From positions 1 through 64,000 of IMG/VR virus record IMGVR_UViG_3300043410_001663: DNA of 64,000 nt. One strand, given 5' to 3'. The DNA is from a virus. The notes under the pieces are model-generated. The model did no database searches, had not been told where the DNA came from, and saw nothing but the letters and a program-made list of their open reading frames with translations. Positions 17,924 to 56,519 of this stretch are shown one piece after another; positions within the stretch are counted from its first letter, which is position 1, and each line of letters starts with the position of its first letter. A program made the translations under genes and the position numbers.

Positions 17924-19369
17924 CTACGCAGCGTATGGGTTATACGCGCGGCGTCGTGCGATGTCGTCCGAGTGCCCATAGTCACGAGACGGCAGCGGGT
18001 CCAGCTCGAGCCAGCCTGAATCCCTGAGCACTCGCAAGGCCTGGGACAGCGCGTCCACGTAGTCATCGTGGCCCTTGGCCTCTGGAAAAGAACAGACCTG
18101 CCGAATGAAGCGCTTGGCCCAGGGGGCCACCTCTCCAGGGTTCTCGGGGTCCTCCGGGACATAAACGCGGCCCTTCGCGATGAGCGGCGCCACGATGTTC
18201 ATCCGCTGGACCTTGTCCGCGCGGCCCGGGTTGTAGCTCATCACCGGCAGACCGGCCTGTTGGAGCTCCTGGAGCAACGAGATACCCGCCGATTTGTCTT
18301 CCATGAGGATCAGGTCCGTCTTTTTACCCTTCGCGAACGTGTTATCGGCGCCGTACACGACCTCCTTGTAGTCATCCGTCACTTTTCGGCGCAGTTCCGG
18401 GTAAGAGAGGTGGTTGTCCCATGAATCCATGAGCAGGGCGCACATTCCGCCGTCCATTTTCTCAAAAAGCCCCAAAACAATGCACGCCGTCGGGTCGTTA
18501 TGGGTCTTTTCGCTCGTCGCGGGGTCGTATGACGCCAAAACGTACTCCAATTTCGGGGTCTCCTTCTCCGCCGGCCACATCTTGAACCACTTCCGCTTCA
18601 CGATACCCGCATTTTCGGGGTCCAGGATCTCGCCATAGATCTCCTGCTTGCCCAGATCGGTGCCTTCGTACGTCTCCAGCTGCTTGAAGAAGGTCGGGGA
18701 GAGGTTTTCCTTGTTGTCGTACGAGCTGGCGCGGCTGACGTACACGTCGCCGCCCACTTTTCCCTCGTTTAGGTCCGTAATTAGCTCGAGTGGCTTCGGA
18801 GTCGTGGTGATAATCGTCTGGACCCGCTTGATTCGGGGGTCCCTCAGACGCAAAGTGAACTGGATCTGGTCGTACGCGTCGTCAATGTACTCAAACGCGC
18901 ACAACTCGTCCATCCAGGCCCCGTGCCACTGTGTTCCCCGGAAGCGTTCCGGCTCAGATGCCGGGATTCCGCGGATCATTGAGCCGTTTTTCAGCGTCAA
19001 CTCGAACAGCGACTTGTTGTAGTCCTTGATCAGCGACTGCGGGATAATGTTCAGTAAGCCTGAATCCCCCTCAAAACACGTCGCCCGGATGTCGTTTGAG
19101 GTCGGCGCCGTCACCAACCACCGCGTGTGGTCGTAAATCGCGGCCCTCTCACCGATCCAGTTGCTCGCGGTGTGCGTCTTGCCCGATCCACGACCAGCCA
19201 AGAGCAAGAATGTGTCATATTCCCCATCGTCCGGCTCCTTTTGGTGGGGCAGGGCGGTCATCGCCCACCTCACCCGCCACAACGCCAGGTCAAGTTGCTC
19301 CTTCGGCCAACCCTTGTTCTTCTCCGCGAACTCCTTCAAGAGCTTCGTCTGTTGCGCATTCATAGGCAT
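17924..19369 (-). CDS. terL: Terminase large subunit (TerL)
   Basis: 481 residues, normal for TerL. Walker A LLAGRGSGKT at residues 56-65, Walker B WMDE at 152-155 with catalytic Glu155, and the coupling motif TTTPKP at 188-193. The RNase H-like nuclease has SYDPA with Asp282, ED at 356-357, and HDDYVDAL at 433-440. It pumps DNA through the portal and cuts concatemers. The ATG lies inside the end of the upstream Hint gene (ten-base overlap), which is unusual and suggests a former fusion. Confidence 0.93.
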   Translation of the reverse strand: MPMNAQQTKLLKEFAEKNKGWPKEQLDLALWRVRWAMTALPHQKEPDDGEYDTFLLLAGRGSGKTHTASNWIGERAAIYDHTRWLVTAPTSNDIRATCFEGDSGLLNIIPQSLIKDYNKSLFELTLKNGSMIRGIPASEPERFRGTQWHGAWMDELCAFEYIDDAYDQIQFTLRLRDPRIKRVQTIITTTPKPLELITDLNEGKVGGDVYVSRASSYDNKENLSPTFFKQLETYEGTDLGKQEIYGEILDPENAGIVKRKWFKMWPAEKETPKLEYVLASYDPATSEKTHNDPTACIVLGLFEKMDGGMCALLMDSWDNHLSYPELRRKVTDDYKEVVYGADNTFAKGKKTDLILMEDKSAGISLLQELQQAGLPVMSYNPGRADKVQRMNIVAPLIAKGRVYVPEDPENPGEVAPWAKRFIRQVCSFPEAKGHDDYVDALSQALRVLRDSGWLELDPLPSRDYGHSDDIARRRAYNPYAA

Positions 19370-20241
19370 ATCGGTAAATACCCCTCACTCACTACCACCG
19401 TGTTGTTTGGGTTCTCGGTCTTGATGTAGATGCAGGGGCGTGGCTTGACCTCCTCCATCCGCTTGATGGTCCGGAACTCGTAGTAGAACTCTTTGCCGGT
19501 CGACGTCTGACCGTCAACCAGCTTCAAGAACGTCTTGAACTCAATGTGAAATTTATTTTGGCGACCGTGCTGCGTGATCTTGGTCGCGACACCCAGCGAC
19601 TCGACCAGGTTCTGGACCTGGCGCAGGATCCCGTAGTCCCTGCTGTCAAAGAAGAACATCGCGTCCTTGGCCCGGAAGGTCCCGCGCTTGCTGAAGATGC
19701 CCCGCGCCAGTGCGAGCCTCTGCTCGAACGACCCAAAGAAGTACTCCTCGGGGATGGTCCGCGGGAGTGTCGGGTACTTCTCGATCAGCTGTCTGGTGAT
19801 GTGGGTCTGCTTGTTCTGCCTGTTGCGGCTGCGCTCACAGATCCACTGGCCGAGGATGTATGGATCCACCGGCAGCTCCCTCTCCGGCATCATGAGCGGG
19901 CGGCAGTTGATGATCCGGACCAGCTTCTCCTGTTCCATCAGCATCTCCGGGCTCATCGGTTGAGCCTCGAGCTCCTGGTGCCTGGACTTCTTGCGGGTCC
20001 ACTTCCGCAAGATCTCGGTCTGCTTGTAGGTAAGAGCAGGGATTCCAGTGCGGCCGTCTACCACCAGCGTCAGGTCGTCCCTCATCCAGAGCTTGTAGCA
20101 CGCCCGCGGCGTGAACTCCTGAGTTGAGACCACCTTCGTCGGTAGGCCATCGTATGAAAACACCGTATCCCCCGACTCGATAAGCGCCGCTGGTTTCCAT
20201 CCGGTAACCGTAGGGACCGGGGTCCGTGCGTCGAATCCCAT
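19360..20241 (-). CDS. Degenerate intein-like protein (Hint plus dead LAGLIDADG) upstream of terL
   Basis: 293 residues. Residues 2-37 match the intein N-terminal block (F-x-x-x-TPVPTVTGWKPAALIESGDTVFS, then YDG). Residues 125-134 (VDPYILGQWI) and 170-188 (GSFEQRLALARGIFSKRG) match the two helices of a LAGLIDADG endonuclease, but the catalytic acidic residues are gone (ICER and FSKRG in place of GDG and DxDG). Residues 270-293 resemble the C-terminal splice block, but end SEGYLPICL instead of the usual HN. It begins Met-Gly with no nucleophile Cys/Ser. It thus looks unable to splice or cut, and is a separate overlapping cistron. Confidence 0.75.
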   Translation of the reverse strand: MGFDARTPVPTVTGWKPAALIESGDTVFSYDGLPTKVVSTQEFTPRACYKLWMRDDLTLVVDGRTGIPALTYKQTEILRKWTRKKSRHQELEAQPMSPEMLMEQEKLVRIINCRPLMMPERELPVDPYILGQWICERSRNRQNKQTHITRQLIEKYPTLPRTIPEEYFFGSFEQRLALARGIFSKRGTFRAKDAMFFFDSRDYGILRQVQNLVESLGVATKITQHGRQNKFHIEFKTFLKLVDGQTSTGKEFYYEFRTIKRMEEVKPRPCIYIKTENPNNTVVVSEGYLPICL

Positions 20242-20261: not shown

Positions 20262-20321
20262 TTCGGTGGCTGATTGCGCCCTTTATCCAGGGGTTTATTA
20301 CAACATGCACTATAGTGCCGA

Positions 20322-20435
<114 letters not shown>

Positions 20436-20655
20436 AAACAGCACTTTTTCCTTATAAATCAACAACTTAGCACGTCTCGCCTTGCTCTCCGGCCGATTCG
20501 TAAGGTAAAAGTATTACTTTTTTGCTGTGATATGCAAAAAATATATAACACAGGGGGATTTATATGAACTTGCTGTCTGTGGGGCCCCCCGCCCCGCCTC
20601 GCCGGATGGGACCCAAACTGGGGTGATGGGGGTCGTGTTGCGCAAAAACAACAAA

Positions 20656-20891
20656 GCAAGAAGCGTGCCACTTTTTCCGCAAGCAAGAACCGTGCCAACC
20701 TGCTGACTGACCGGTCAGTCAGTAAGGCGCGGCGATCCTGGCACGAACATTGCAACGAAGCAAGAAGCGTGCCAACCCAGACTGGCACACTGCTTGCTAA
20801 TAGCAAGGACCGTGCCACCGCGGCCAAGCAAGGACCATGCCAACGTGGCGAGTGGGCGGCGCAGGCCAAGCAAGAACCATGCCAACGTGGC
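20656..20891. repeat. Array of six 15-17 bp iterons (GCAAGAACCGTGCCAAC type)
   Basis: Direct copies at 20656-20670, 20683-20699, 20760-20776, 20803-20819, 20828-20849 and 20870-20891; positions 6 to 10 vary (AAGCG, AACCG, GACCG, GACCA, AACCA). The last two extend to a shared ACGTGGC. Weaker inverted copies lie at 20739-20753 and 20783-20797. Spacing is irregular (27, 77, 43, 25 and 42 bases between starts). Iterons next to DnaA boxes are typical of origins bound by an initiator, but no initiator of the RepA type is recognised in the window. Confidence 0.65.
20703..20722. promoter_or_regulatory. Perfect 20-bp palindrome inside the iteron array
   Basis: CTGACTGACCGGTCAGTCAG is its own reverse complement. 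A palindrome this long is unlikely by chance and the TGACCGGTCA core is like TetR-family operators, so a dimeric regulator probably binds here. No TetR gene is visible in the window, so the protein could be of host origin. Confidence 0.5.
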
Positions 20892-20979
20892 CAGGGCGAC
20901 CCAGTTTGGTGCGCACGCGAGGCGCCGGTGAGGGGAGGGCGCCGCATACTGTACAAACGCCCAGGTCACGCGGCAAGAG

Positions 20980-21059
20980 TTATCCACAGCTTATCAACAG
21001 GCCAAGTTATCCACAGGTTGTTCACATGTTATCCACAGGTTGTTCACATGTTATCCACC
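20980..21059. other. DnaA-box cluster, probable replication origin
   Basis: Three perfect TTATCCACA boxes (20980-20988, 21007-21015, 21029-21037), a fourth TTATCCACC (21051-21059) and TTATCAACA (20991-20999). Between them TTGTTCACA occurs twice (21018-21026, 21040-21048), giving a 22-bp unit repeated exactly in tandem at 21007-21050. TTATCCACA is the classical high-affinity box for bacterial DnaA. This strongly suggests that the phage recruits host DnaA at this site. Confidence 0.8.
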
Positions 21060-21076: not shown

Positions 21077-21129
21077 AACCCCCACCCGAGATGACCAGAA
21101 TAGTATCAGCAACACACCAGGAGAACAGC
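21077..21129 (+). promoter_or_regulatory. Early intergenic element, copy 1
   Basis: First of nine copies of an element with the core CCCACCCGA(A/G)(T/A)TGACCAGA, then a TA-rich TAGTATCA-like block, then a CAGGAGAAC-type Shine-Dalgarno and the ATG. This copy lies directly after the DnaA boxes and starts the early operon. Confidence 0.7.
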
Positions 21130-21321
21130 ATGAAGACAACCAAGACCAGCCAAGGCGCATACAGTGTGACGGGCCACACCAAGGCCGGCGACCTCGTCCA
21201 GTACGAGGTGGCACGCAACGGCCACGGATGGTCCGTCGATCTGGTGTATGGCAACGGCGCAGTGTTCAACATGCTGTACCCCACCAAGGCCGAGGCCATC
21301 GCGGCCATCGCCGGCCAGTGA
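21130..21321 (+). CDS. Small early protein (63 aa)
   Basis: Start chosen at the ATG after the early element and its AGGAG, not the earlier in-frame ATG that would run through the DnaA boxes. Beta-rich with an Ala-rich C-terminus (PTKAEAIAAIAGQ), a layout seen in small DNA- or protein-binding phage proteins. No family recognised. First gene after the origin, so probably expressed very early. Confidence 0.6.
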   Translation: MKTTKTSQGAYSVTGHTKAGDLVQYEVARNGHGWSVDLVYGNGAVFNMLYPTKAEAIAAIAGQ

Positions 21322-21373
21322 ACCCCCACCCGAGATGACCAGATTAGTATCAGCAACACACCAGGAGAACGAC
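21321..21373 (+). promoter_or_regulatory. Early intergenic element, copy 2
   Basis: Begins with the last base of the preceding TGA stop and runs to the next ATG. Core CCCACCCGAGATGACCAGA followed by TTAGTATCAGCA; nearly identical to copy 1 across its full length. Confidence 0.7.
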
Positions 21374-21613
21374 ATGATCGCAAAGAAGCACATCAAGGCC
21401 ATCAACGAACTGCTCAACAGCGAGTCCGCCGCGCAGTCCCTCATCGACCGCAGGGCCAGCGACCCAGGCATGACCCGCGAGCGCATGGCCCACTGGGTCG
21501 ACCACGGCCGCCGCGCGGCCACCGAACTGATGGCCACGTACGGCATCCAGTCCAGCGCCGGTTCGATCGAGTACTGGGAGAGCATGGCGATCCACTTCCC
21601 GCTCGCCGCCTGA
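21374..21613 (+). CDS. Small early helical protein (79 aa)
   Basis: Preceded by early element 2 and a GGAG Shine-Dalgarno, which fixes the start. Helical, with MTRERMAHWVDHGRRAATELM resembling a short amphipathic helix. No recognised family; role unknown but early. Confidence 0.6.
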   Translation: MIAKKHIKAINELLNSESAAQSLIDRRASDPGMTRERMAHWVDHGRRAATELMATYGIQSSAGSIEYWESMAIHFPLAA

Positions 21614-21657
21614 ACCCCCACCCGAATTGACCAGATTAGTATCAACAGGAGAACGAC
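21613..21657 (+). promoter_or_regulatory. Early intergenic element, copy 3
   Basis: Core CCCACCCGAATTGACCAGA followed by TTAGTATCAACAGGAGAACG; shorter by about eight bases than copies 1 and 2 between the core and the ATG. Confidence 0.7.
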
Positions 21658-21948
21658 ATGACCACACTGACCCAAGCCACCTACGAGCGCATGAACGACC
21701 TGCGGACCCAGGTCCGCAACGACCTGATGCGGGTCCAGCGCATGTTCAACAAGAACCCCAACGCCACCAACTGGGAGGTCTGCACCCGCGCCATGCTGGT
21801 GTTCCAGCAGGTGGACTGGGCCTGCCGCTCGAACATAGTCGACCACGTGGCGCTCCTCCTCGACCTGGACCACGCCACGGTCGGCGAGTGGGGCGACATC
21901 ATCACCCGCGCCACCCTCGGGATGTCGGTCGCCAGCGCCCTCGCCTGA
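21658..21948 (+). CDS. Small early helical protein (96 aa)
   Basis: All-helical protein with VQRMFNKNPNATNWEVCTRAML and a C-terminal LGMSVASALA. Placed directly after early element 3. No recognised family. Confidence 0.6.
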   Translation: MTTLTQATYERMNDLRTQVRNDLMRVQRMFNKNPNATNWEVCTRAMLVFQQVDWACRSNIVDHVALLLDLDHATVGEWGDIITRATLGMSVASALA

Positions 21949-21962
21949 ACCAGGGGCACGCC

Positions 21963-22118
21963 ATGAAGACGATCACCATCCTGACCTACACCGCCGGCCT
22001 GCTGGGCCTGACCAAGCACTGGCAACCGCTGTGCGACCTGACCTGGGACGAGTACGTGGCCCTGGCCGCCCGCCGCCCTGGTGAGGGCACCACGTGGCGC
22101 GCGGTGTTCAAGGCCTGA
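21963..22118 (+). CDS. Short early protein (51 aa)
   Basis: Follows the previous stop by 14 bases without an early element; the sequence MKTITILTYTAGLLGLTKHW is followed by a Trp-rich charged half. Ends with TGA where element 4 begins, which supports the reading frame. Function unknown. Confidence 0.5.
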   Translation: MKTITILTYTAGLLGLTKHWQPLCDLTWDEYVALAARRPGEGTTWRAVFKA

Positions 22119-22170
22119 ACCCCCACCCGAGAAGACCAGAGTAGTATCACCAACCACAACGGAGCACACC
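22118..22170 (+). promoter_or_regulatory. Early intergenic element, copy 4
   Basis: Core CCCACCCGAGAAGACCAGA, then GTAGTATCACCAA and CGGAGCACACC. This copy lacks the TTGACC seen in others (it reads AGACC), so the TTG is not strictly conserved. Confidence 0.65.
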
Positions 22171-22467
22171 ATGCAGACAGCCTACATCAACCTGATCAAG
22201 CACGCACTCAGCGAGGGCCACACCGTGTCGGTGTGGGACGGCGAGGAGTGGCAGGTCAAGCGGTCCACCAGCCTGCGCGCCATCACTGAGGCCGTGAAGT
22301 CGGTCGAGGAGGCCACGTTGCGCATCCGCAACCAGGACGGCGACGTGGTGGCCTGGGCCCTGGTCTCAGCGTACGGTCTGGCACCGGACGAGACCGTGAT
22401 CGACTACGGCGACAACGACTGGACCAACGCGTGGTTCGTGAACTACAGCAAGACCCAGGAGGCCTGA
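22171..22467 (+). CDS. Small early alpha/beta protein (98 aa)
   Basis: Start set by element 4. Contains VSVWDGEEWQVKRSTSLRAI and an acidic C-terminus (DETVIDYGDNDWTNAW), a compact fold with unknown function. Common in small accessory phage genes but no family recognised. Confidence 0.6.
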   Translation: MQTAYINLIKHALSEGHTVSVWDGEEWQVKRSTSLRAITEAVKSVEEATLRIRNQDGDVVAWALVSAYGLAPDETVIDYGDNDWTNAWFVNYSKTQEA

Positions 22468-22469
22468 CC

Positions 22470-22664
22470 ATGCGGACCAACATCAACCGGCCCTGGGTGG
22501 CCCACGTGGACGACGAGCGGGACATCGGCAACAGCGTGATCGTGACCCTGGCGCCGGGATGGTTTTTCAAGGGCACCGACGAGGGAGTGCGCGGGTACGA
22601 TACCATGCGCGAGGCCAAGGCGGACACCGTGCGCGCCAACGTGGAGAACCCCCACCCGAATTGA
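22470..22664 (+). CDS. Small early protein ending inside the next element (64 aa)
   Basis: The ATG follows the previous stop by two bases. The C-terminus NPHPN and the stop TGA are encoded by early element 5 (the TGA of TTGACC). So the element supplies the end of this gene. Sequence MRTNINRPWVAHVDDERD with no known domain. Confidence 0.5.
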   Translation: MRTNINRPWVAHVDDERDIGNSVIVTLAPGWFFKGTDEGVRGYDTMREAKADTVRANVENPHPN

Positions 22665-22699
22665 CCAGAATAGTATCAGCAACACACCAGGAGCACACC
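22647..22699 (+). promoter_or_regulatory. Early intergenic element, copy 5
   Basis: Core CCCACCCGAATTGACCAGA, then ATAGTATCAGCAACACACCA and a GGAG ribosome site. Its first half is also the end of the upstream gene. Confidence 0.7.
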
Positions 22700-23443
22700 A
22701 TGACCAAGCCCACCGGATTCACCATCTACCAAGGTCCCAGCATGATCGACGGCACGCCCATCGTGGCCATCGCCCTCCTCGGGTCATCGAACCGCAAGAC
22801 GGGTAACATGGTCCAGACCTATATCCTGCGCCAGGACATGCGTCCCGTCCAGGCGGTCCAGACCGGCGCGGACGTGGCCATCTGTGGCGACTGCAAGCAC
22901 CGCCCGTCCAACGGTGGCGCGTGCTACGTGGTCGTGGCCCAGGGCCCGACCGTGGTGTTCAAGACCTGGGTGGCAGGCAAGTACCCCACAGCATCCGCCA
23001 CTGAGGTCGGCCAGATGGTCGCAGGCCGCATGGTCCGACTGGGCACCTATGGCGACCCCGCCGCCGTGCCCGCCGATGTGTGGGAGAACCTGACGGCCCT
23101 GGCCGCAGGCCGCACCGGGTACACCCACCAGTGGCGCAACCCGGCCCTGTCGGCCGACCACCGTGCGCGCATCGTGCGCCTGTGCATGGCATCGGTCGAC
23201 AACGCACTCGAGGCCCAGGAGGCCCGCACCAGTGGCATGCGTTACTTCCGCATCCGCACCGCGGACGAGGTGGTCGGCCAGGGTGAGTTCGTGTGCCCGG
23301 CCAGCGCCGAGGGCGGCATGCGCAAGCTCTGCACCACCTGCGGCGCCTGCAACGGCACGACCAAGGCGACCGGCGCCAGCCCGGTGATCATCGTCCACGG
23401 CAACAAGGCCAGCCGGTTCACCACCCAGCGGGCGGCGGCCTGA
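22700..23443 (+). CDS. Conserved phage protein with two Cys clusters (247 aa)
   Basis: Start after element 5. Four-Cys-like clusters are visible: CGDCKHRPSNGGACYV near residues 61-77 and LCTTCGACNG near residues 216-225, suggesting two zinc or iron sites. I recognise this as a conserved hypothetical of phages of Proteobacteria (DUF7227-like), but the biochemical role is unknown to me. It is the largest gene of this region and may be a host takeover factor. Confidence 0.7.
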   Translation: MTKPTGFTIYQGPSMIDGTPIVAIALLGSSNRKTGNMVQTYILRQDMRPVQAVQTGADVAICGDCKHRPSNGGACYVVVAQGPTVVFKTWVAGKYPTASATEVGQMVAGRMVRLGTYGDPAAVPADVWENLTALAAGRTGYTHQWRNPALSADHRARIVRLCMASVDNALEAQEARTSGMRYFRIRTADEVVGQGEFVCPASAEGGMRKLCTTCGACNGTTKATGASPVIIVHGNKASRFTTQRAAA

Positions 23444-23487
23444 ACCCCCACCCGAGATGACCAGATAGATATCAACAGGAGAACGAC
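23443..23487 (+). promoter_or_regulatory. Early intergenic element, copy 6
   Basis: Core CCCACCCGAGATGACCAGA, then TAGATATCAACAGGAGAACG. The TA block reads AGATATCA here, showing that TATCA is the conserved part. Confidence 0.7.
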
Positions 23488-23712
23488 ATGCGATACACCG
23501 AAGCCCAATACATCGACGAGGGATTCCGTCTGGGGTCTCTGACGAACCGAAGCGCCTACGCCGCCCGGTCTGATATGCTGAACATCATGCTGTCAGCAGA
23601 AGCGCTCGAGGACATGGCCCAGGCACGTGCCTGGATCCACCAGGGTCAAGTGAAGGCCATCGAGCTGAACAACGAGATGTACCTGCGCAACCTTCAACGA
23701 GCAAAGGCCTGA
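23488..23712 (+). CDS. Small early helical protein (74 aa)
   Basis: Charged helical protein (ARSDMLNIMLSAEALEDMAQ) with no recognised domain, started by element 6. Confidence 0.55.
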   Translation: MRYTEAQYIDEGFRLGSLTNRSAYAARSDMLNIMLSAEALEDMAQARAWIHQGQVKAIELNNEMYLRNLQRAKA

Positions 23713-23714
23713 CC

Positions 23715-23879
23715 ATGACACCCATCGACAACCCCAACTTCATCCGCGTCCTGCTGGACCGGTTCGGCCCGGTCCGTGTGGAGAAGGACGGCACCAAAAT
23801 CATGCGCGTCCTGACCGACACCGACAAGGACATCTACTGGCTACTGGACAAAAACGAAATCGCACACATTGGAGAATGA
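23715..23879 (+). CDS. Short early protein (54 aa)
   Basis: Begins two bases after the previous stop; sequence MTPIDNPNFIRVLLDRFGPV then VEKDGTKIMRVLTDTDKD, ending HIGE. Its stop region supplies the GGAG ribosome site of the next gene. No family recognised. Confidence 0.5.
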   Translation: MTPIDNPNFIRVLLDRFGPVRVEKDGTKIMRVLTDTDKDIYWLLDKNEIAHIGE

Positions 23880-23880
23880 A

Positions 23881-24258
23881 ATGAAAATCGAGTACACCAA
23901 CAACCTCATCCGATACGCCTACAACGAGAAGCACGACTGCTCGGTGATGGCACTCTCCACGGCCATCGCCATGCCGTACGACAAGGCCTGGGACCTGCTC
24001 AGGGACCACGGCCGCCGTGCCCGCAGTGGTGTCCGCCTCACGCCCCTGACCAACGCATACCGGGCGGCGATGGGCCTCGAGTACCAGCCGGTGGCCGGGC
24101 GACCGACCATCGAGCAGTTCACCCAGGACCACGACACCGGGACCTGGATCGTGCGACTGAGCAACCACGTATTCGTCCTGCGTGACGGCGTGCAGATGGA
24201 CGTCCAGGTCAACAGCAAGTACCGCCACGTGCTGGGGTACTGGAGGGTCGGGGCATGA
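23881..24258 (+). CDS. Papain-like cysteine peptidase-fold protein (125 aa)
   Basis: Start MKIEYTNNL is preferred over the ATG 12 bases upstream because GGAG sits seven bases before it. Contains DCSVMALSTAIAMPYDKAWDLL (Cys at about residue 20, helix start), a GR(R) turn, then GTWIVRLSNHVFVLRDGVQMD with the His of a Cys-His pair about 90 residues later. This spacing is that of small papain-like folds widespread in phages. Activity and target are unknown. Confidence 0.6.
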   Translation: MKIEYTNNLIRYAYNEKHDCSVMALSTAIAMPYDKAWDLLRDHGRRARSGVRLTPLTNAYRAAMGLEYQPVAGRPTIEQFTQDHDTGTWIVRLSNHVFVLRDGVQMDVQVNSKYRHVLGYWRVGA

Positions 24259-24476
24259 GAGACGAAATCATCAAGATGGCGCGAGAGGCTGGAATTGTGT
24301 TTGATGAGCGAGCATTCCCATTTTATGAACGCTTCTTCCACATGGCTCAAGCCGCAGAGCGTGAGGCGTGTGCGAAGCTGGTTCAAGACAACGCAATGGC
24401 TTGCGAGCCGGGATCAATGTTGCAGGTTTATCTTGCAAGCAATGCCACCGCCATTCGAGCAAGGGGACAAACATGA
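24255..24476 (+). CDS. Paralogue family protein (MRDEIIKMAR), copy A (73 aa)
   Basis: Helical protein with MRDEIIKMAREAG, then FYERFFHMAQAAEREACAKLV. Similar proteins are encoded at 24473-24688, 34884-35102 and 35102-35341, so the phage has expanded this family. Such DUF-type proteins are common in phages of Betaproteobacteria; function unknown. ATGA overlap with the gene before. Confidence 0.7.
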   Translation: MRDEIIKMAREAGIVFDERAFPFYERFFHMAQAAEREACAKLVQDNAMACEPGSMLQVYLASNATAIRARGQT

Positions 24477-24688
24477 ACGAGCGCATCTTCCAGATGGCCA
24501 GGGAGGCCCACCTCATACCCACCACAGGGGACTGCGACCCCTGGTACATCGCCACGGTGGTGCGGTTCTACCACATGGTCCAGGCCGAGGAGCGCCGTGC
24601 CTGCGAGGCCGTATGCGATACCCTCGCCGACGAGGGCAAGACGGCATACCAATGCAGAGACGCCATCCACGCCAGGGGGCTGACATGA
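24473..24688 (+). CDS. Paralogue family protein, copy B (71 aa)
   Basis: Starts with the overlapping ATGA of copy A. MNERIFQMAREAHL, then VRFYHMVQAEERRACEAV corresponds to FFHMAQAAEREACAK in copy A. Likely tandem duplication. Followed at once by early element 7. Confidence 0.65.
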   Translation: MNERIFQMAREAHLIPTTGDCDPWYIATVVRFYHMVQAEERRACEAVCDTLADEGKTAYQCRDAIHARGLT

Positions 24689-24735
24689 ACCCCCACCCGA
24701 ATTGACCAGAGTGATATCATCAACAGGAGCACACA
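24688..24735 (+). promoter_or_regulatory. Early intergenic element, copy 7
   Basis: Core CCCACCCGAATTGACCAGA, then GTGATATCATCAACAGGAGC. The TA block reads TGATATCA here. Confidence 0.65.
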
Positions 24736-25002
24736 ATGATCAAGGTTACATACTACACCGACCCGGGCCATGGGTGGTACGCGGTCAAGCGCGACACACT
24801 GGCCAAGCTGGGCCTGCTGTACGAAGTGAGTACTTACTCTTATCAGCGGGGCGAGACGGTCTACCTGGAGGAGGACTGCGACGCCACTATCTTCTTCAAC
24901 AGAATCAACGCGATGGGGCTCAGTGTTACACTCAAGACCAAGCACACCGACAAGCGCCACCCCATCCGGTCGTACGCCGTCTTCCACCCCCACCCGAATT
25001 GA
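24736..25002 (+). CDS. Small early protein ending inside the next element (88 aa)
   Basis: Beta-rich MIKVTYYTDPGHGWYAVKRD protein; hypotheticals of this type with DPGHGW occur in phages of several hosts. C-terminal FHPHPN and the TGA stop come from element 8, as in the gene ending at 22664. Confidence 0.65.
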   Translation: MIKVTYYTDPGHGWYAVKRDTLAKLGLLYEVSTYSYQRGETVYLEEDCDATIFFNRINAMGLSVTLKTKHTDKRHPIRSYAVFHPHPN

Positions 25003-25032
25003 CCAGAGTATTATCAACAACAGGAGCACACC
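24985..25032 (+). promoter_or_regulatory. Early intergenic element, copy 8
   Basis: Core CCCACCCGAATTGACCAGA, then GTATTATCAACAACAGGAGC. TATTAT is the closest match in the set to a sigma70 -10 box. Confidence 0.7.
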
Positions 25033-25260
25033 ATGAACCGACCACTACACACCATCGCGGCAGAGATCAAGCTGTCCTGGCCCAAGCCCTATTTTGGTGC
25101 GGTGCCCTATTTGCAGGCGATGGCCTGCATGGGTGACATCAACGACCGATTCGGGTATGATGACGGCCGCTCGATCGTGAATTATTTTCTGGCCAACGCC
25201 AAGACCTGGAAGGGCGACGACGCCCGCCGTGTCAAGGCAGAACTGAAGGGGATGGTATGA
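25033..25260 (+). CDS. Small early protein (75 aa)
   Basis: Conserved-looking helical protein with FGAVPYLQAMACM then DGRSIVNYFLANAKTWKGDDARRVKAEL. Related hypotheticals are frequent in phages of Proteobacteria. Function unknown. Overlaps the next gene as ATGA. Confidence 0.65.
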   Translation: MNRPLHTIAAEIKLSWPKPYFGAVPYLQAMACMGDINDRFGYDDGRSIVNYFLANAKTWKGDDARRVKAELKGMV

Positions 25261-25556
25261 CACCGAAACGTAAAGCAATCAACGCCCTGCGCCATGTCGC
25301 GGCGATGCACTTCAACCGCAAGATGCCCAGGTGGACCAAGGTGAGCGGGCTGTGCTGGGCCACCTCGCACGTATGTGGGGAGTGTGGGGACCTGCAACCG
25401 TACGATGACGACCAGTATCAGATCATCAACCAGTGGTGCAAGCCCCATGCACGCACCGGCAACAACGACTTTCATCAGGACTACATCGCCCAACCGGGCA
25501 AGCACTGGGGCCAGCGTGCGATGTTCGCACTGTTACTGGCGGAGAGCAAGTCATGA
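25257..25556 (+). CDS. Hypothetical Cys/His-containing early protein (99 aa)
   Basis: Basic protein with CWATSHVCGECGD and later WCKPH, a possible zinc site (C, C-x2-C, C-x2-H). No family recognised; ATGA-coupled at both ends. Confidence 0.55.
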   Translation: MTPKRKAINALRHVAAMHFNRKMPRWTKVSGLCWATSHVCGECGDLQPYDDDQYQIINQWCKPHARTGNNDFHQDYIAQPGKHWGQRAMFALLLAESKS

Positions 25557-25645
25557 GACACATCAAGGACCTACTGCAGGCGGTGATCCTGGCCGCGTTA
25601 TTTGCACTCCCGTTCATCGTTTACCTGTACAATATGACGCCATGA
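25553..25645 (+). CDS. Single-span membrane peptide (30 aa)
   Basis: MRHIKDLLQAVILAALFALP followed by FIVYLYNMTP: a short cytoplasmic start and one transmembrane helix. Overlaps neighbours by four bases on both sides, which supports translation. Function unknown. Confidence 0.5.
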   Translation: MRHIKDLLQAVILAALFALPFIVYLYNMTP

Positions 25646-25908
25646 ACAACTGCGAACCCGGCGACCTCGCCATCGTCGTATCCTCACCCATCTACCCCGA
25701 GTTCATCGGGCGCATATACAAGGTCGTCGCCTTGTTTGGGTTGCAAGAGAACGGGCGTGCCGCCTGGGCCGTGGAGGGCAACTGCAAGACCAACGACGGA
25801 AAGAGGATACTGTATGTCGAAGACCAACTGCTCAAGCCAATCAGACCAGACGCCGGACCCTCACTGGCCGTTCCCACAACCGGGCCAGATCAAGCGGGTC
25901 AAGGATAA
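25642..25908 (+). CDS. Small SH3-like early protein (88 aa)
   Basis: MNNCEPGDLAIVVSSPIYPE with GRIYKVVALF and a long Pro-rich tail resembles small SH3-type beta barrels of the KOW-like kind (GDLAIVV...NxGRIYKV). No specific function. Its end overlaps the next gene in another frame. Confidence 0.55.
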   Translation: MNNCEPGDLAIVVSSPIYPEFIGRIYKVVALFGLQENGRAAWAVEGNCKTNDGKRILYVEDQLLKPIRPDAGPSLAVPTTGPDQAGQG

Positions 25909-25951
25909 CCCCAACCCCTACCCATCAGACGCGGAAGAAGCCCCATTCTGA
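25814..25951 (+). CDS. Short overlapping Pro-rich protein (45 aa)
   Basis: Overlaps the previous gene by 95 bases in a different frame. AGAGGA lies seven bases before its ATG and early element 9 begins at its TGA, as for other genes in this series; both support it. Sequence is Pro/Asp-rich and likely disordered (DNPNPYPSDAEEAPF). Confidence 0.4.
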   Translation: MSKTNCSSQSDQTPDPHWPFPQPGQIKRVKDNPNPYPSDAEEAPF

Positions 25952-25998
25952 ACCCCCACCCGAATTGACCAGAGTATTATCAACAACAGGAGCACACC
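25951..25998 (+). promoter_or_regulatory. Early intergenic element, copy 9
   Basis: Identical to copy 8 from the core through GTATTATCAACAACAGGAGC. Last full copy; a diverged relative (TTGACGAATTAGTATGAAAG) is seen at 27072-27091 before the sigma gene. Confidence 0.7.
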
Positions 25999-26250
25999 AT
26001 GAAGACAGACCTCGGAGCAGTAATCGAAGCCAGCAACGGCAAGTTCATCAGCGTGACGTTCGTCAAGAAGGACGGCTCGATCCGTGTCTTGGTCGGACGC
26101 CTGGGTGTCAAGAAGCACCTCAAGGGCGGCGAGTCGACCCTGGACGCCGACAAGTACATCACCATCTTCGACACCCAGAACGGCGGCTACCGCGCCATCA
26201 ACCGTGATACCATTCAATCTGTCCGCATCGACGGCGTGGAGTTCGCATGA
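25999..26250 (+). CDS. SH3-type beta-barrel protein (83 aa)
   Basis: The pattern GKFISVTFVKKDGSIRVLVGRLGVKKHLKGG, then KYITIFDTQNGGYRAINRDTIQSVRIDG, matches the phage SH3-fold family (WYL_2/DUF2693-like) seen in many phages. The conserved KDGSxR and GGYRxINxDTI strands are present. Probably a nucleic-acid-binding small barrel; function unproven. Confidence 0.7.
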   Translation: MKTDLGAVIEASNGKFISVTFVKKDGSIRVLVGRLGVKKHLKGGESTLDADKYITIFDTQNGGYRAINRDTIQSVRIDGVEFA

Positions 26251-27105: not shown

Positions 27106-27253
27106 GAGAATCATTTCGATTTGTGCAGGGTAGGCTGGATGTGCAGGGTATATCTATTCTTTTTATTTTTTTTCACACACGATTAAAAAAAAATAAATAA
27201 AGTAAACATACCCTGCCTACCCTGCAAACCCTGCACAAATAGGAATTATTCTC
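27106..27253. repeat. Long inverted repeat with TGCAGGGT motifs, copy 2
   Basis: The left arm (27106-27173) and right arm (27184-27253) are imperfect reverse complements, beginning GAGAATxATTxC and continuing ATTTGTGCAGGGT; each carries two or three GCAGGGT units and the centre is T-run then A-run. It is flanked by direct repeats GAAAGTACTCAT (27087-27098) and GAAAGTATTCAT (27272-27283). Together with copy 1 it brackets the element-controlled cassette. Confidence 0.7.
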
Positions 27254-27286: not shown

Positions 27287-27799
27287 ATGGCACTCACACC
27301 TGATCAGGAAAAAGAGCTCGCGGCGATGGCCCAGGCCGGCGACGAGGAGGCCCTAGAATCGTTTTTTCAGGCCAACCGGGGCCTAGCCCTGTACGTGGTC
27401 CAAAAAATGCCCCAGTGGGCCGTAGAATCGGCCATGACCCGTGATGACCTGATCCAGGAGGCCTACATCGCCCTGGTCCACGCGATCCAGACCTGGAAGC
27501 CCAAGAAGCGATTCGCGACCTATGCCCAGAAGGTGATCATGGGCCGGGTGCGGCGCGCGGTGGAGAACGGGAGCCAGATGATCAGGATCCCGGTACCGGT
27601 CCAGGAGGACATCCGCAAGATCAAGTCGGCCCAGTCCAAGTTGCACCAGCTACTGGGACGTGAGCCCTCACTGACCGAGGTGGCCCAACTACTGGATGAG
27701 CATACAGACTGGGTGAAGGATAGAATCGTGGTAAGCCAGCGCCAGCCGGTGAGCCTGGACGCGTACAAGCGGGACAACCTATCGGAGGAGTCGGAATGA
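27287..27799 (+). CDS. Phage sigma factor with regions 2 and 3 but no region 4
   Basis: 170 residues. DLIQEAYIALVHAIQTW (about 54-70) and RFATYAQKVIMGRVRRAVEN (about 75-94) are sigma region 2.2-2.4, which binds beta-prime and melts the -10 box. IRIPVPVQED then LHQLLGREPSLTEVAQLL (about 99-136) is region 3. The protein stops before the region 4 helix-turn-helix that reads -35. T4 gp55 is a known sigma of this truncated kind for late promoters. A region-4-like protein is encoded at 37814-38110. No clear Shine-Dalgarno precedes the ATG. Confidence 0.85.
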   Translation: MALTPDQEKELAAMAQAGDEEALESFFQANRGLALYVVQKMPQWAVESAMTRDDLIQEAYIALVHAIQTWKPKKRFATYAQKVIMGRVRRAVENGSQMIRIPVPVQEDIRKIKSAQSKLHQLLGREPSLTEVAQLLDEHTDWVKDRIVVSQRQPVSLDAYKRDNLSEESE

Positions 27800-32388: not shown

Positions 32389-32753
32389 AAGTCGAAATCA
32401 GAGAGCAGATCGAAGACTACCCGCCCAGCGGCTGGGTCACGTTCGAGTCTATGCGGCAGGCCGCGGATGTGGTAGGATGCTCTGCCCGTCAACTGGGACA
32501 GCAGATGGCGGGTCACAGAGAGTTCACGAAAACCAAGCTCGGAAAAGTAATCCAAATCAGACAACACCATGAACAAGCCAACAGTCCTACCAGTCCAGTT
32601 CGAGTCGATCCCGATCGGCCTCAAGAAAATACCCCGCTGGGTTTTGTGGCGGCTAGTCGAGGTTGGGGAAGGGTCGAGCAAGCGTTGGTCAAAGTTACCT
32701 TTGCAGTCCAATGGGTCCGCAGCAAGTTCAACAAACCCCGAGACGTGGTGTGA
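32385..32753 (+). CDS. Hypothetical protein overlapping the primase start (122 aa)
   Basis: The first 60 codons are non-overlapping and encode a helix-turn-helix-like segment (MRQAADVVGCSARQLGQQMA). The last 62 codons lie inside the primase gene in another frame, so the C-terminal half may be chance. The start overlaps the preceding stop. Could be a small DNA-binding accessory to replication. Confidence 0.5.
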   Translation: MKVEIREQIEDYPPSGWVTFESMRQAADVVGCSARQLGQQMAGHREFTKTKLGKVIQIRQHHEQANSPTSPVRVDPDRPQENTPLGFVAASRGWGRVEQALVKVTFAVQWVRSKFNKPRDVV

Positions 32754-34887
32754 TTTTCTACACGCTCAAGAGGCTTATCAAGCGGGTCGGTTTGATGGTG
32801 TCGGCTTTGTATTTGATGGCAGTGATGGCATCGTTGGGGTCGACCTGGACGACTGCATTGACCCATCGGTGGGCGTCGATTCTCTCACCCCAGAGGCGCG
32901 CGCGATCCTCGAAGGCGTCGAAGGGTACGCCGAGGTCAGCCCATCAGGCACCGGCCTCAAGATCTTCACCCGGGCAGAGATAACCGCGGCCCACGTCGAC
33001 CACGACAAGGGCCTGGAGATCTACCCCCGAGGCCGTTACTTCACGGTGACGGGGCACGTCATCGGCGGCGCGATCCCCGACGAGGTGCAGAACCTCTCAG
33101 ACATCGTCCCCGAGCGCCAGAGCTACCGCTCAGGCGACGACTTCGCCGACTACAGCCCGCCCCTGGAGGGCTGGGACCTTGCGCGTGTGGAGACGGACCT
33201 CCTGGCGCACCTCGAGCCCGACTGTGGCTACGCGGACTGGCTCCAGGTGGGGATGGCCCTACAGCACCAGTTCGGCGGCGACTACGAGGCCCAGGAGCTC
33301 TGGGACCGCTGGTCGTACCAGGACGGGAAGTGCGCGTCCTACGTCGAGGGCGAGTGCGCCCGCAAGTGGAACAGCTTCAGCGGCACGAGCGGGACGACCC
33401 TGCGGACGTTGGTGTTCAAGGTCAACCGCATGAAGGAGGCCGAGGTCATCGCCAACGGCGAGAAGGTCTTGACGGGTGGCCCATTGAACCACGCCCGGGA
33501 GTTCTTGAGCAGCACCTTCTCGTGCGAGGAGGGGACCACCTTGTCGACCTACGGCGGTGACATGTTCCAGTTCAAGGGGACACACTACGAGGACATCGAG
33601 GAGGCGACCGTGCGCGCGCACCTCTACACCTTCCTGGACAAGTGCAAGAAGTACGACAAGAAGATGAACCTGATCCCGTTCAACCCGGGCCCGTCTGTCG
33701 TCTCTGGCGTCCTGGACGCGGTGCAGGCACTGACCCACCTCCCCAACAAGGCCAACACCCGGCCGCCGGTGTGGTTGGACGGGTACGGTGCCGACAAGCC
33801 CGAGCCGGCGAAACTGGTCTCGTTGCAGAACGGGCTATTCCACACCGAGCAGAACGTGCTGATCCCCCACAGCCTGGGCTTCTTCACGCTCAACAGTTTG
33901 CCGTTCGAGTACGACCCGCTCGCCGAGTGCCCGACCTGGACGGCGTTCTTGAACGATCTGTGGAGTGACGACCCCGAGAGCATCACCTGCCTCCAGGAGA
34001 TGTTCGGCTACATCCTGAGCGGGGACTCGAGCCAGCAGAAGTTCTTCAACATCATCGGCCCGCGCCGCTCAGGCAAGGGGACCATCAACAAGGTGCTCGT
34101 GTCCCTGCTGGGCCAGCACAACACAGTGGCGCCCCAGTTGGAGGAGCTCTGTGACACATTCGGGTTGCAGCCATGGCTAGGAAAATTACTTGCATCCTTC
34201 ACGGATGCCCGAGCACCGGAAAGAAATCGGGGGGCTGTAGTGAGTCAACTGCTCCGGATTGTTGGTGGCGACACCGTGACCGTGAACCGGAAGAACAAAG
34301 AAGCCTGGAGCGGCTATTTGCCGACGCGTATCGTGATCTACTCGAACGAGGCGCTGCAGTTGACGGAAAACTCCAACGCTTTGACGGGCCGGATGATCGT
34401 CCTCAAGATGTCCAACAGTTTCTATGGTCGGGAAGACGTGTCGTTGTCCGACAAGCTGGCCAAGGAGCTCCCGGGGATCTTCAACTGGGCGATCGAGGGC
34501 CAGCAGAGACGGATGGCCAGGAACGGCCAGAGGTTCAACCAGCCGAAGACGGGCCGGGAGCTACTGGAGCTGATGGAGGAGCTGAGTAACCCGATCGGTT
34601 CGTTCGTGCAGGACGCGCTGGTGTACGAGCCGATGGGGCACGTCAACAAGGACGACGTGTTCACGTGCTGGAAGAAGTGGGCCTTGGCGAAAAACATCCC
34701 ACCAGGGACCGACCTCGCATTCAAGCGCCGGTTCCTGGCCGCGACCCAGGACCACCGTGTCGTGGCGGACCGCATCCGCGTCGACGGCGAGCAGCACAAC
34801 GTCTACCGCGGCGTCGTGCTCAACGCCAAGGCCCGCAAGTATGTCGACAGCATCAGCAACTTCGAGCGTGAGGAGATATTCGCATGA
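32569..34887 (+). CDS. Primase-polymerase and SF3 helicase (P4/D5-like, 772 aa)
   Basis: The N-terminal prim-pol domain has GFVFDGSDGIVGVDLDDCID (Asp92, Asp94) and SPSGTGLKI. A PriCT-like domain lies near residues 210-290, and a D5_N-like region near 330-390. The SF3 helicase has Walker A GPRRSGKGT (about 496-504) and later IVIYSNEALQLTENSNALTGRM. It makes primers and unwinds DNA at the replication fork. Next to nuclease and SNF2 genes, it forms the core replication module, presumably loaded at the 20-21 kb origin. Confidence 0.85.
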   Translation: MNKPTVLPVQFESIPIGLKKIPRWVLWRLVEVGEGSSKRWSKLPLQSNGSAASSTNPETWCDFLHAQEAYQAGRFDGVGFVFDGSDGIVGVDLDDCIDPSVGVDSLTPEARAILEGVEGYAEVSPSGTGLKIFTRAEITAAHVDHDKGLEIYPRGRYFTVTGHVIGGAIPDEVQNLSDIVPERQSYRSGDDFADYSPPLEGWDLARVETDLLAHLEPDCGYADWLQVGMALQHQFGGDYEAQELWDRWSYQDGKCASYVEGECARKWNSFSGTSGTTLRTLVFKVNRMKEAEVIANGEKVLTGGPLNHAREFLSSTFSCEEGTTLSTYGGDMFQFKGTHYEDIEEATVRAHLYTFLDKCKKYDKKMNLIPFNPGPSVVSGVLDAVQALTHLPNKANTRPPVWLDGYGADKPEPAKLVSLQNGLFHTEQNVLIPHSLGFFTLNSLPFEYDPLAECPTWTAFLNDLWSDDPESITCLQEMFGYILSGDSSQQKFFNIIGPRRSGKGTINKVLVSLLGQHNTVAPQLEELCDTFGLQPWLGKLLASFTDARAPERNRGAVVSQLLRIVGGDTVTVNRKNKEAWSGYLPTRIVIYSNEALQLTENSNALTGRMIVLKMSNSFYGREDVSLSDKLAKELPGIFNWAIEGQQRRMARNGQRFNQPKTGRELLELMEELSNPIGSFVQDALVYEPMGHVNKDDVFTCWKKWALAKNIPPGTDLAFKRRFLAATQDHRVVADRIRVDGEQHNVYRGVVLNAKARKYVDSISNFEREEIFA

Positions 34888-38578: not shown

Positions 38579-38959
38579 ATGGCAACTAAATACACCTACG
38601 ATCCGAAAATGTGCGACGAGCTGGTAGAGCTCGGGAAGACTGGCGCGAGCCAGAAGATGATGTTTGCCGCGTTGGGCATTAGCTCGACGGCGGCCCAGAC
38701 CATGCGCAAGAACCACCCTGAGTTCGCCGACGCGCTGGACCTGGCCATCACACACGCACAGGCCTACTGGGAGCAGCAGATGTTGGAGAACGTCGGCAAC
38801 AAGGCATTCAACTCCCGCATCGCCGAGATCGCACTGCGCGGCCAGTTCCCTGGGGACTACCGCGAGGAGCGCATCAAGGCCGAGGTCAAGGCGGACGTCA
38901 CGGTGGACTTTGGTTCCGCGGTCAACGACCTGATCAACTCGCTCAAAAAAGCAATCTGA
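38579..38959 (+). CDS. terS: Probable terminase small subunit (126 aa)
   Basis: Begins five bases after the tRNA CCA end. KYTYDPKMCDELVELGKTGA then ALGISSTAAQTMRKNHPEFADAL is the helix-turn-helix of TerS-like proteins (pattern MCDxxxEL...G...ALGIS...HPEFxxAL), followed by a helical oligomer region EQQMLENVGNKAFN. TerS recognises packaging DNA for TerL. Here it is 18 kb from terL and on the other strand, so expected to be made earlier; this is unusual. Confidence 0.7.
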   Translation: MATKYTYDPKMCDELVELGKTGASQKMMFAALGISSTAAQTMRKNHPEFADALDLAITHAQAYWEQQMLENVGNKAFNSRIAEIALRGQFPGDYREERIKAEVKADVTVDFGSAVNDLINSLKKAI

Positions 38960-41189: not shown

Positions 41190-41856
41190 TGAGTCCGGGG
41201 TCGCGCCCCGGATAGGTCAGCCCGGCCGAGTAGAAGGGACAACCCGGTGGGAAGCTCGGGGCCAATAAGTTTGGGGATCGCGCAACGGGTTAGCGCCGTT
41301 GCAGTTCTTTGATCCTTTCTTCAAAACACTGCTTTATGTGGGCGGTCTCCAAACTTGTTGGTAAAAGGGCCTAGTCAGCCCAACCTTTGCCGCGTGGTTA
41401 ACGCGGAAAGCGGACAGGTAAATCCCACTGACAATGGGCAAGCCGGAAAAGTGTTCGCAAGCTGGGAGGTTACCCTACGACCCAGCACCAACGTGAGTGA
41501 GGATTGAACGTACCAGCCACCCCTGAAAGGTGGGGCTCTGGTGGAAAGCGTTACCTGGTAACCAATGCCAGCAGTCCTCACCCATGTTGGTGTATGAGGT
41601 TCTAGTCAAACCGCGGTACTGATCACCGTAGCCTAATTCAGTTAAGGGCCACGCAACCGATGACAACGGTTCGCCAACAACCAACAAAGAAGGTGTTTAG
41701 CCAAGGCGCAGTCCCGTGAGCGGGGACTGAATCAATGCTGAGGTCGGGCGTGCGTCACCACGCCGGGGGCTATATCCTGTAGACACTTTCTTTGTTGGTG
41801 GTTAAGCGTGTTGACGCATGGCCCATAGCCATGAAGGTCGGCGCCCACCAACAACA
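41190..41856 (+). ncRNA. Large ornate structured RNA (~660 nt), GOLLD/ROOL-like
   Basis: A gene-free stretch packed with stems: 41194-41200/41206-41212; 41267-41277/41346-41356 enclosing 41282-41288/41296-41302; 41390-41394/41402-41406; 41461-41466/41481-41486; 41488-41503/41575-41590; 41655-41659/41667-41671; 41681-41699/41780-41798 (19 bp, two GU); 41709-41715/41723-41729; 41817-41822/41828-41833. Closing TTGTTGG/CCAACAA pairs join distant parts. Size, density and phage context match giant RNAs such as GOLLD and ROOL. Family assignment is inference. Confidence 0.7.
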
Positions 41857-55421: not shown

Positions 55422-56519
55422 TCAGATCTCCGTGGACAGCACTGCGGCTGAATAAATGTTGCCCATGCCCGCGGCAAGGCTCAGGATTGTGTTGCCGGGC
55501 ACCGCAATGTCCTCAGACAGGAAACGAAGGTCTTGATTGGTCCGGTTGGCGATCCCTGGGACAACGCCCGTGTTCGCCATGTCGTCCAGCAACAGGCAGG
55601 TCTCCAACAGGCCGCTCGAGCCCATCGTGTGTCCGATTTTTGCCTTGTATGACGTTGCCACAAAATCCTTCAGTCTTGCCTCTATTGCGGCCTTCTCGGC
55701 GACGTTGTTTGACGCCGTCCCAGTGCCATGCGTTTTAACTATTGAAACCTCTTTGACCTTAGCCAAGGCCATCGCCCCGTCCATGGCCCGGATGAACCCC
55801 TGTCCATCCTCTCGTTGCCCGATAGCGTTCGTGCTATCCTCGCTGGCGCTATACGCACCCAGCAGCTTGGCCTTTGCGTTCTGCGCCACCCGATCAGACT
55901 CGAATACCGCCAACACGCTCCCCTGCCCAATCCTGAACCCTCGGTTCACTGTATCGAAGGCCGAGGGCAACACGCCGTCTTGCTCTTCTTTCCAGGACAG
56001 GGAGGCCTTCGTCTCTCCAAAGAACTCCAACACCGTGTTTGACACGCCGTCCTCAACCGACAGCACGACCACCCTATCAAATCCGTACATCTCAATCAGC
56101 GTCTGCACGTCCATCAAGGCCTTCAGGCTGGATGCACACGCCGATGCGTCTGTCACCACGTGCTCAACGCCTCCCAGGGCCTGGGCCACACGGCCCGCGT
56201 AGACCTGGGTCAACGTGAGCGGCAAGAAACGGTAGTCATACGTCAACCGCGTCTCGGGCCTCTCTGGTGCCTTCAACCCAGCAAATGCAGTGTTGCCGGC
56301 GGCCAGGATGAGCGCCGTCTTGCACGGCCTATCTTTAAGCACACTCATCAATGCAGGATCCAGGACCTTCTCCGCCACCTTATGGGGCGGGTAGAACATG
56401 CCGGTCTTCACCCTGGCATACGTCTCTGGGAACCAATGCACCCGTTGAGGGAACATGATGTCATCCAACAACTCGACCTGCGTCGAGTGCGCCGTCCTGT
56501 AGTCTGTGAGGTAGATCAA
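55422..56519 (-). CDS. Beta-ketoacyl-ACP synthase (FabF/KAS II-like, 365 aa)
   Basis: Thiolase-fold condensing enzyme. Active-site Cys128 in TDASACASS, His264 in VKTHGTGTASNNVAEK, Lys292 and His297 in YKAKIGHTMGSSGLLE, and a C-terminal GMGNIYSAAV glycine loop: the complete C-H-H-K set of FabF-type enzymes. At 365 residues it is about 45 shorter than FabF, mostly at the N-terminus. It joins acyl-ACP to malonyl-ACP. The adjacent ACP gene is coupled to it. A condensing enzyme in a late phage operon is very unusual. Confidence 0.85.
   Translation of the reverse strand: MIYLTDYRTAHSTQVELLDDIMFPQRVHWFPETYARVKTGMFYPPHKVAEKVLDPALMSVLKDRPCKTALILAAGNTAFAGLKAPERPETRLTYDYRFLPLTLTQVYAGRVAQALGGVEHVVTDASACASSLKALMDVQTLIEMYGFDRVVVLSVEDGVSNTVLEFFGETKASLSWKEEQDGVLPSAFDTVNRGFRIGQGSVLAVFESDRVAQNAKAKLLGAYSASEDSTNAIGQREDGQGFIRAMDGAMALAKVKEVSIVKTHGTGTASNNVAEKAAIEARLKDFVATSYKAKIGHTMGSSGLLETCLLLDDMANTGVVPGIANRTNQDLRFLSEDIAVPGNTILSLAAGMGNIYSAAVLSTEI

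What the first reader, a model, noticed from the sequence alone, without database searches (positions are those of the whole stretch)
20656..21059. Bacterial-type origin of replication with iterons and DnaA boxes
Three perfect TTATCCACA boxes, two more one-base variants, two TTGTTCACA boxes and a duplicated 22-bp unit follow six 17-bp iterons. Phage origins seldom carry so many DnaA boxes. With a prim-pol/SF3 helicase but no recognised initiator, the phage may use host DnaA, perhaps to replicate as a plasmid or to titrate DnaA.
Basis: partly seen in the sequence, partly recalled or inferred. Interest (0 to 1): 0.7.

Follow-up and report, generated by a model that had tools for sequence, protein, structure and literature searches.

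The report
Phage origin region with DnaA-box array
In a freshwater-type phage, the gap between the packaging genes and the early genes carries a phage-specific repeat array (probably its replication origin) plus a tandem array of binding sites for the host's own replication starter DnaA, which this phage family seems to have gained or lost several times.

Summary
At 20656-20884 there are six direct iterons plus two inverted ones. At 20980-21059 there are seven same-strand 9-mers, mostly at 11-bp pitch: 3 perfect TTATCCACA, two one-base variants, 2 TTGTTCACA. The cluster is far beyond chance. The site is the divergent intergenic region between terL and the early genes.

Relatives in IMG/VR show two layers. 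The core is conserved: an AT-centred palindrome, a 59-bp GGGGCCCC...GGGACCC block and inverted/direct GCAAGN5TGCC iterons, in most relatives. DnaA boxes are optional, present in about a quarter of relatives. They changed at least 3-4 times on the terL tree, lie on either side of the iterons, and always point toward the early genes. The phage has an initiator candidate: its prim-pol/SF3 protein ends in a confidently modelled RFX-type winged helix, the domain logic of P4 alpha.

Best reading: an iteron origin run by a phage initiator, with an accessory host-DnaA array, like plasmid P1 or RK2 origins. 'DnaA instead of an initiator' and 'phage-plasmid' are not supported. DnaA titration, promoter control and a packaging role remain open. 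Similar arrays occur in T5-, T7- and SP6-like phages.

The parts
20320..20433 (.). AT-centred palindrome (imperfect here; A29 run at 20371-20399), possible unwinding element; first of two copies in this genome
   Evidence: lowest GC of the region, 22% at 20341-20440; same element with long, nearly perfect arms at this place in relatives
20567..20625 (.). conserved block GGGGCCCCCCGCCCC...GATGGGACCC of unknown role
   Evidence: blastn matches of 77-87% identity in most terL-side relatives; recognisable even in the 75%-identical MAG phages L174/L175
20656..20670 (+). iteron 1 GCAAGAAGCGTGCCA
20683..20697 (+). iteron 2 GCAAGAACCGTGCCA
20703..20722 (.). perfect 20-bp palindrome CTGACTGACCGGTCAGTCAG, also in L088
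20739..20753 (-). inverted iteron (2 mismatches), pairs head-to-head with iteron 3
20760..20774 (+). iteron 3
20783..20797 (-). inverted iteron (1 mismatch), pairs head-to-head with iteron 4
20803..20817 (+). iteron 4
20828..20842 (+). iteron 5
20870..20884 (+). iteron 6
20980..21059 (+). array of seven DnaA-box-like 9-mers, mostly 11-bp pitch, with a duplicated 22-bp unit
   Evidence: significance; recurrence in relatives
21077..21129 (+). first of nine copies of a repeated leader element (CCCCCACCCGARNTGACCAGANTAGTATC) ahead of early genes
32569..34887 (+). prim-pol / SF3 helicase protein, candidate initiator
   Evidence: Pfam PriCT_2, D5_N, DUF5906; PHROG DNA primase; NrS-1 prim-pol fold and sequence match
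34573..34884 (+). C-terminal winged-helix domain of that protein, candidate iteron binder
   Evidence: AlphaFold2 mean pLDDT 87.7; Foldseek RFX DNA-binding domain, TM-score to target 0.76-0.80

Best explanation
The region 20320-21059 is the phage's replication origin, built like an iteron-plasmid origin with two layers. A phage initiator, most likely the prim-pol/SF3 protein through its C-terminal winged helix (inferred), binds the inverted and direct iterons. The AT-rich palindrome next to them melts, and the SF3 helicase and primase start synthesis by the phage PolA replisome (inferred from P4 alpha and pRN1). The tandem TTATCCACA array binds host DnaA as a short filament, one monomer per helical turn (inferred from sequence). 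DnaA then helps initiation by bending or melting the origin or by attracting host proteins, as in plasmids P1 and RK2. The array is a recent, clade-specific addition and is dispensable in the family as a whole. Shown: the elements, their conservation or its absence, and the domain architecture. Inferred: every binding event and every step of initiation.
For: Six direct and two inverted iterons, found only here in the 68.4-kb record. Iterons and/or the conserved block recur at the same place upstream of terL in most relatives with enough sequence, often as alternating inverted and direct copies about 21 bp apart. Perfect TTATCCACA is about 34 times denser in this region than elsewhere in the terL loci: 20 boxes in 69 kb against 7 in 810 kb (loci are related, so the printed p-value overstates independence). 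All 20 point toward the early genes. Nine of 36 loci with at least 2 kb upstream have a box there; the trait needs at least 3-4 changes on the terL tree. Box arrays lie after the iterons (window, L088, L139, L148, L153) or between the palindrome and the block (L150, L157, L160, L166); in L075/L076 four boxes at 11-bp pitch adjoin a similar palindrome just upstream of the primase gene. The window has 7 boxes where its 97%-identical relative L088 has 2, a local expansion. The initiator candidate has prim-pol, SF3 and winged-helix parts. P4 alpha binds its origin repeats with a winged helix, then unwinds and primes (PMC4234260). P1 has two DnaA-box arrays of which the second can compensate for the first, and DnaA-box orientation matters in RK2 (PMC4980987).
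Against: No coverage, footprint or replication data were available. Cumulative GC skew has its minimum at 26-27 kb, about 6 kb to the right of the site; in four relatives the minimum lies from about 4.5 kb before to about 7 kb after terL, and skew is confounded by gene direction. No direct link between the winged helix and the iterons was tested; iteron and winged-helix co-variation was not measured. The region is one of few large non-coding gaps, so any non-coding element would tend to collect there. Box arrays in several cultured phages lie at genome ends rather than at known origins.
Confidence: 0.5

Rival explanations
1. DnaA titration or takeover: the array is a decoy. As phage copies rise, the boxes soak up host DnaA and stop host chromosome initiation; the adjoining iterons may be an origin or not.
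For: Arrays of perfect boxes recur in lytic phages that carry their own replisomes, such as T7-like A7 (4 perfect boxes at 22-136), T5-like DT57C (4 in about 80 bp) and SP6-like FBKp16 (6 in about 160 bp). In this family the boxes are optional and their place varies. Plasmids with DnaA-box regions do titrate DnaA in E. coli (PMC5835720).
Against: Titration does not need fixed orientation, yet all 20 boxes in relatives point the same way (about four to five independent events, so weak). Boxes sit beside the conserved origin-like core rather than scattered. Seven sites per genome would matter only after many copies exist.
Confidence: 0.22
2. Packaging or terminus region: the iterons and conserved block are the recognition site of terminase (pac or cos region) and the boxes are incidental or help end processing.
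For: The region lies just upstream of terL. In the distant relative Caulobacter phage RW the record's terminal repeat ends in the equivalent divergent gap, judged from duplicated genes gp001-009 and gp097-105. Box arrays lie within about 140 bp of genome ends in T7-like A7 and Arthrobacter phages. Contig ends of relatives cluster upstream of terL.
Against: Those contig ends are scattered over about 1 kb and many stop inside the A-run or repeats, which looks like assembly breaks, not one fixed end. The window contig and many relatives run straight through. The terminase small subunit candidate (38579-38959, phrog_309) is not next to terL.
Confidence: 0.14
3. Transcription control: iterons and DnaA boxes are operators of the divergent early and late promoters, with DnaA acting as a transcription factor.
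For: The array ends about 20 bp before the repeated leader element that precedes the first early genes. The phage encodes a sigma-70-like factor (27287-27799).
Against: Only weak sigma-70-type promoter matches in the region, none of them at the array. The leader element also precedes many early genes without boxes or iterons.
Confidence: 0.1

Closest known systems
Iteron-plasmid origins with DnaA boxes (P1 oriR, RK2 oriV, pSC101)
   Same: Iterons beside an AT-rich element and a tandem array of DnaA boxes; boxes can sit on either side of the iterons; P1 has two arrays (PMC4980987).
   Different: No Rep of the RepE/TrfA type was recognised in the proteins scanned; the candidate initiator is a prim-pol/SF3 protein; the iterons are mixed inverted and direct; boxes are absent in most relatives.
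Phage P4 origin and alpha protein; pRN1 replication protein
   Same: One protein with primase, SF3 helicase and C-terminal winged helix; [quoted passage not shown]
   Different: P4 alpha has a TOPRIM primase and pRN1 no iterons; DnaA boxes are not part of either as described there. Foldseek's best hit for the winged helix is RFX, not P4 alpha.
DnaA-box clusters in lytic phages (T5-like DT57C, T7-like A7, SP6-like FBKp16, Arthrobacter Tiff81, Limnohabitans DC31)
   Same: Three to six perfect TTATCCACA in non-coding DNA.
   Different: Those arrays were found near genome ends or in other gaps; none was checked here for a neighbouring iteron array.
NrS-1 prim-pol phage protein
   Same: N-terminal prim-pol domain matches by sequence and fold.
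   Different: Nothing about its origin was compared here.

Membership tests
Iteron-type origin | several direct repeats of about 15-22 bp in a short non-coding stretch | tested here: met
Iteron-type origin | adjacent AT-rich unwinding element | tested here: met
   22% GC at 20341-20440, 32-41% to 20590
Iteron-type origin | DnaA boxes in or beside the origin | tested here: met
   optional in relatives
Iteron-type origin | cognate initiator that binds the iterons | not testable with these tools
   a candidate with a winged helix exists; binding not shown
Iteron-type origin | drives autonomous replication | not testable with these tools
   needs experiment
P4-alpha-like initiator | primase + SF3 helicase + C-terminal winged helix in one protein | tested here: met
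   (winged helix is from a model)
P4-alpha-like initiator | TOPRIM-type primase domain | tested here: not met
   the primase is of the NrS-1 prim-pol type, so it is not a P4 alpha family member
Bacterial oriC (DnaA-only origin) | DnaA boxes required and conserved | tested here: not met
   most relatives with the core lack consensus boxes
Phage-plasmid | partition or plasmid replication genes | tested here: inconclusive
   none among the proteins scanned; many small early genes were not scanned
cos/pac site | fixed physical DNA end or read-end pile-up | tested here: inconclusive
   contig ends scattered; no reads available

The most novel reading that the evidence does not exclude
Lytic phages repeatedly and independently acquire arrays of host DnaA boxes as a host-sensing or host-takeover device that is separate from origin recognition, and this family, with close relatives that carry 0, 2 or 7 boxes, is a natural experiment for it.
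Probability: 0.25. Interest if true: 0.7.

Novelty: new variant of a known kind. Interest (0 to 1): 0.45.

Why it matters
If the reading holds, it shows how a phage with its own prim-pol/SF3 initiator can still plug host DnaA into its origin, and that this connection is gained and lost on short time scales. The 0, 2, 3 and 7-box relatives give a ready comparison for what DnaA boxes do for a lytic phage, a question also raised by the T5-, T7- and SP6-like arrays.

Tried and rejected
BLASTN of the region or of 20 kb of the genome against cultured phages: no match. Exact pattern of the alternating TTATCCACA/TTGTTCACA array in viral contigs: none. 'Host DnaA is the only initiator': rejected as a family-wide rule because boxes are optional. 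'Contig ends mark a cos site': rejected because ends scatter and stop in the A-run. GC skew as origin evidence: not used, confounded with gene direction. Host identification: two contigs with terL relatives (75%) in one betaproteobacterial MAG, weak and not relied on. The AT palindrome as a unique origin mark: weakened, since a second copy lies at 27119-27240 and relatives often have two. Full-length model of the prim-pol protein: mean pLDDT 68, helicase part poor, so only its N- and C-terminal domains were used. Caulobacter phage RW lacks such boxes in the parts read. Rfam on a hairpin upstream of the RNR gene: nothing.

Full report
OBSERVATION. The window is 64 of 68.4 kb of an IMG/VR phage record. 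Between a leftward unit (terL 17924-19369 and an overlapping upstream ORF, 19360-20241) and the rightward early genes there is a non-coding gap of about 0.9 kb. It holds, in order: an AT-rich palindrome with a run of 29 A (20320-20433), a GC-rich block (20567-20625), six direct iterons (20656-20884) with two inverted ones between them, and seven DnaA-box-like 9-mers on one strand (20980-21059). Five sites within one mismatch of TTATCCACA in 90 bp never came close in 60 simulated windows (maximum 2). The iteron is found nowhere else in the record.

RELATIVES. Scans with the prim-pol/SF3 and terL proteins gave 80 loci each, at 64-96% and 76-97% amino-acid identity. Aligned by terL, relatives have the same gap. 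The block 20567-20625 is matched at 77-87% identity in most of them, and GCAAGN5TGCC iterons appear in most that reach far enough, often as alternating inverted and direct copies about 21 bp apart. Some divergent members, including two contigs in a betaproteobacterial MAG (L174, L175), keep the palindrome and a GGGGCCCC block but have few or other repeats.

THE DnaA LAYER. In the terL loci perfect TTATCCACA occurs 20 times in 69 kb of this gap region against 7 times in 810 kb elsewhere, and all 20 face the early genes. But only 9 of 36 loci with at least 2 kb upstream have one. On a terL tree the trait needs 4 changes, at least 3 forced by well-supported branches; the tree cannot tell gain from loss. 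Placement differs between clades: after the iterons in the window clade (11-bp pitch) and in L139/L148/L153 (19-20-bp pitch), before the block in L150/L157/L160/L166. L075 and L076 have four boxes at 11-bp pitch beside a similar palindrome, directly upstream of the primase gene; the contig of L075 stops inside terL and that of L076 has no terL match, so the usual site could not be seen. Different placements suggest independent gains. L088, at 97% terL identity, has two boxes where the window has seven, so the window array looks freshly expanded from a 22-bp duplication. L088 is the only close relative with the full region, so this rests on one comparison.

INITIATOR. The 772-aa protein at 32569-34887 has PriCT_2 and D5-type SF3 signatures, an N-terminal prim-pol domain matching phage NrS-1 by sequence and fold, and a C-terminal domain modelled as a winged helix with mean pLDDT 87.7, whose best solved match is the RFX DNA-binding domain. 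P4 alpha and the pRN1 replication protein combine the same functions: the winged helix binds the origin, SF3 opens it, the primase primes (PMC4234260). The link from this winged helix to these iterons is inference; no co-variation test was made.

MECHANISM. I think it most likely that the prim-pol/SF3 protein recognises the iterons, that the AT-rich element opens, and that host DnaA on its array helps. The DnaA step is the weaker part. In plasmid P1 two DnaA-box arrays exist and one can stand in for the other, and in RK2 inverting one box abolishes replication (PMC4980987); mobile but oriented arrays fit that. Titration fits the optional character of the boxes and their presence in phages with other replication systems. 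The packaging-site reading gains from the neighbourhood of terL and from phages whose arrays lie at their ends, and loses from the scatter of contig ends.

HOW RARE. Three perfect boxes at exactly this pitch occur in at least 120 viral contigs (scan stopped at its limit), mostly without detectable kinship to this phage. In cultured phages clusters are found in T5-like, T7-like, SP6-like, Arthrobacter and Limnohabitans phages. So the array is uncommon but a recurring feature. What is less ordinary is its turnover beside a conserved iteron core within one phage family.

LIMITS. The host is unknown, reads were not available, the relatives are metagenomic fragments that often break in this region, and related loci are not independent in the counts. 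The locus selection was by terL similarity, not by presence of boxes, except for the 18 records, which were chosen partly because they had boxes and are not used for rates.

Noticed in passing
20320-20433 and 27119-27240; L093, L109, L117, L150, L153, L160 and others: AT-centred palindromes with GC-rich arms of about 17-39 bp, built of 9-11-bp units, in intergenic gaps; relatives often have two copies. Arm sequence usually agrees within a genome but differs widely between genomes while staying self-complementary. Function unknown.
   Followed up: partly
19360-20241 (-): Intein-like (Hint/LAGLIDADG) ORF overlapping the start of terL; it matches intein-bearing terminase profiles and weakly LAGLIDADG_3. 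A homologous stretch lies upstream of terL in relatives.
   Followed up: partly
21078-26003 (+), nine copies: Repeated leader CCCCCACCCGARNTGACCAGANTAGTATC...AGGAG ahead of early genes, perhaps a phage promoter; the phage encodes a sigma-70-like protein at 27287-27799.
   Followed up: no
41676-41803: Long hairpin (21-bp arms) upstream of the ribonucleotide reductase gene; no Rfam match.
   Followed up: partly
55422-56519 (-): Beta-ketoacyl synthase-like gene among structural genes; a similar gene is annotated in the relative MW202545.
   Followed up: no
viral contigs L176-L255; phages A7, DT57C, Tiff81, FBKp16, DC31: Tandem TTATCCACA arrays in many unrelated phages, several close to genome ends.
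   Followed up: partly
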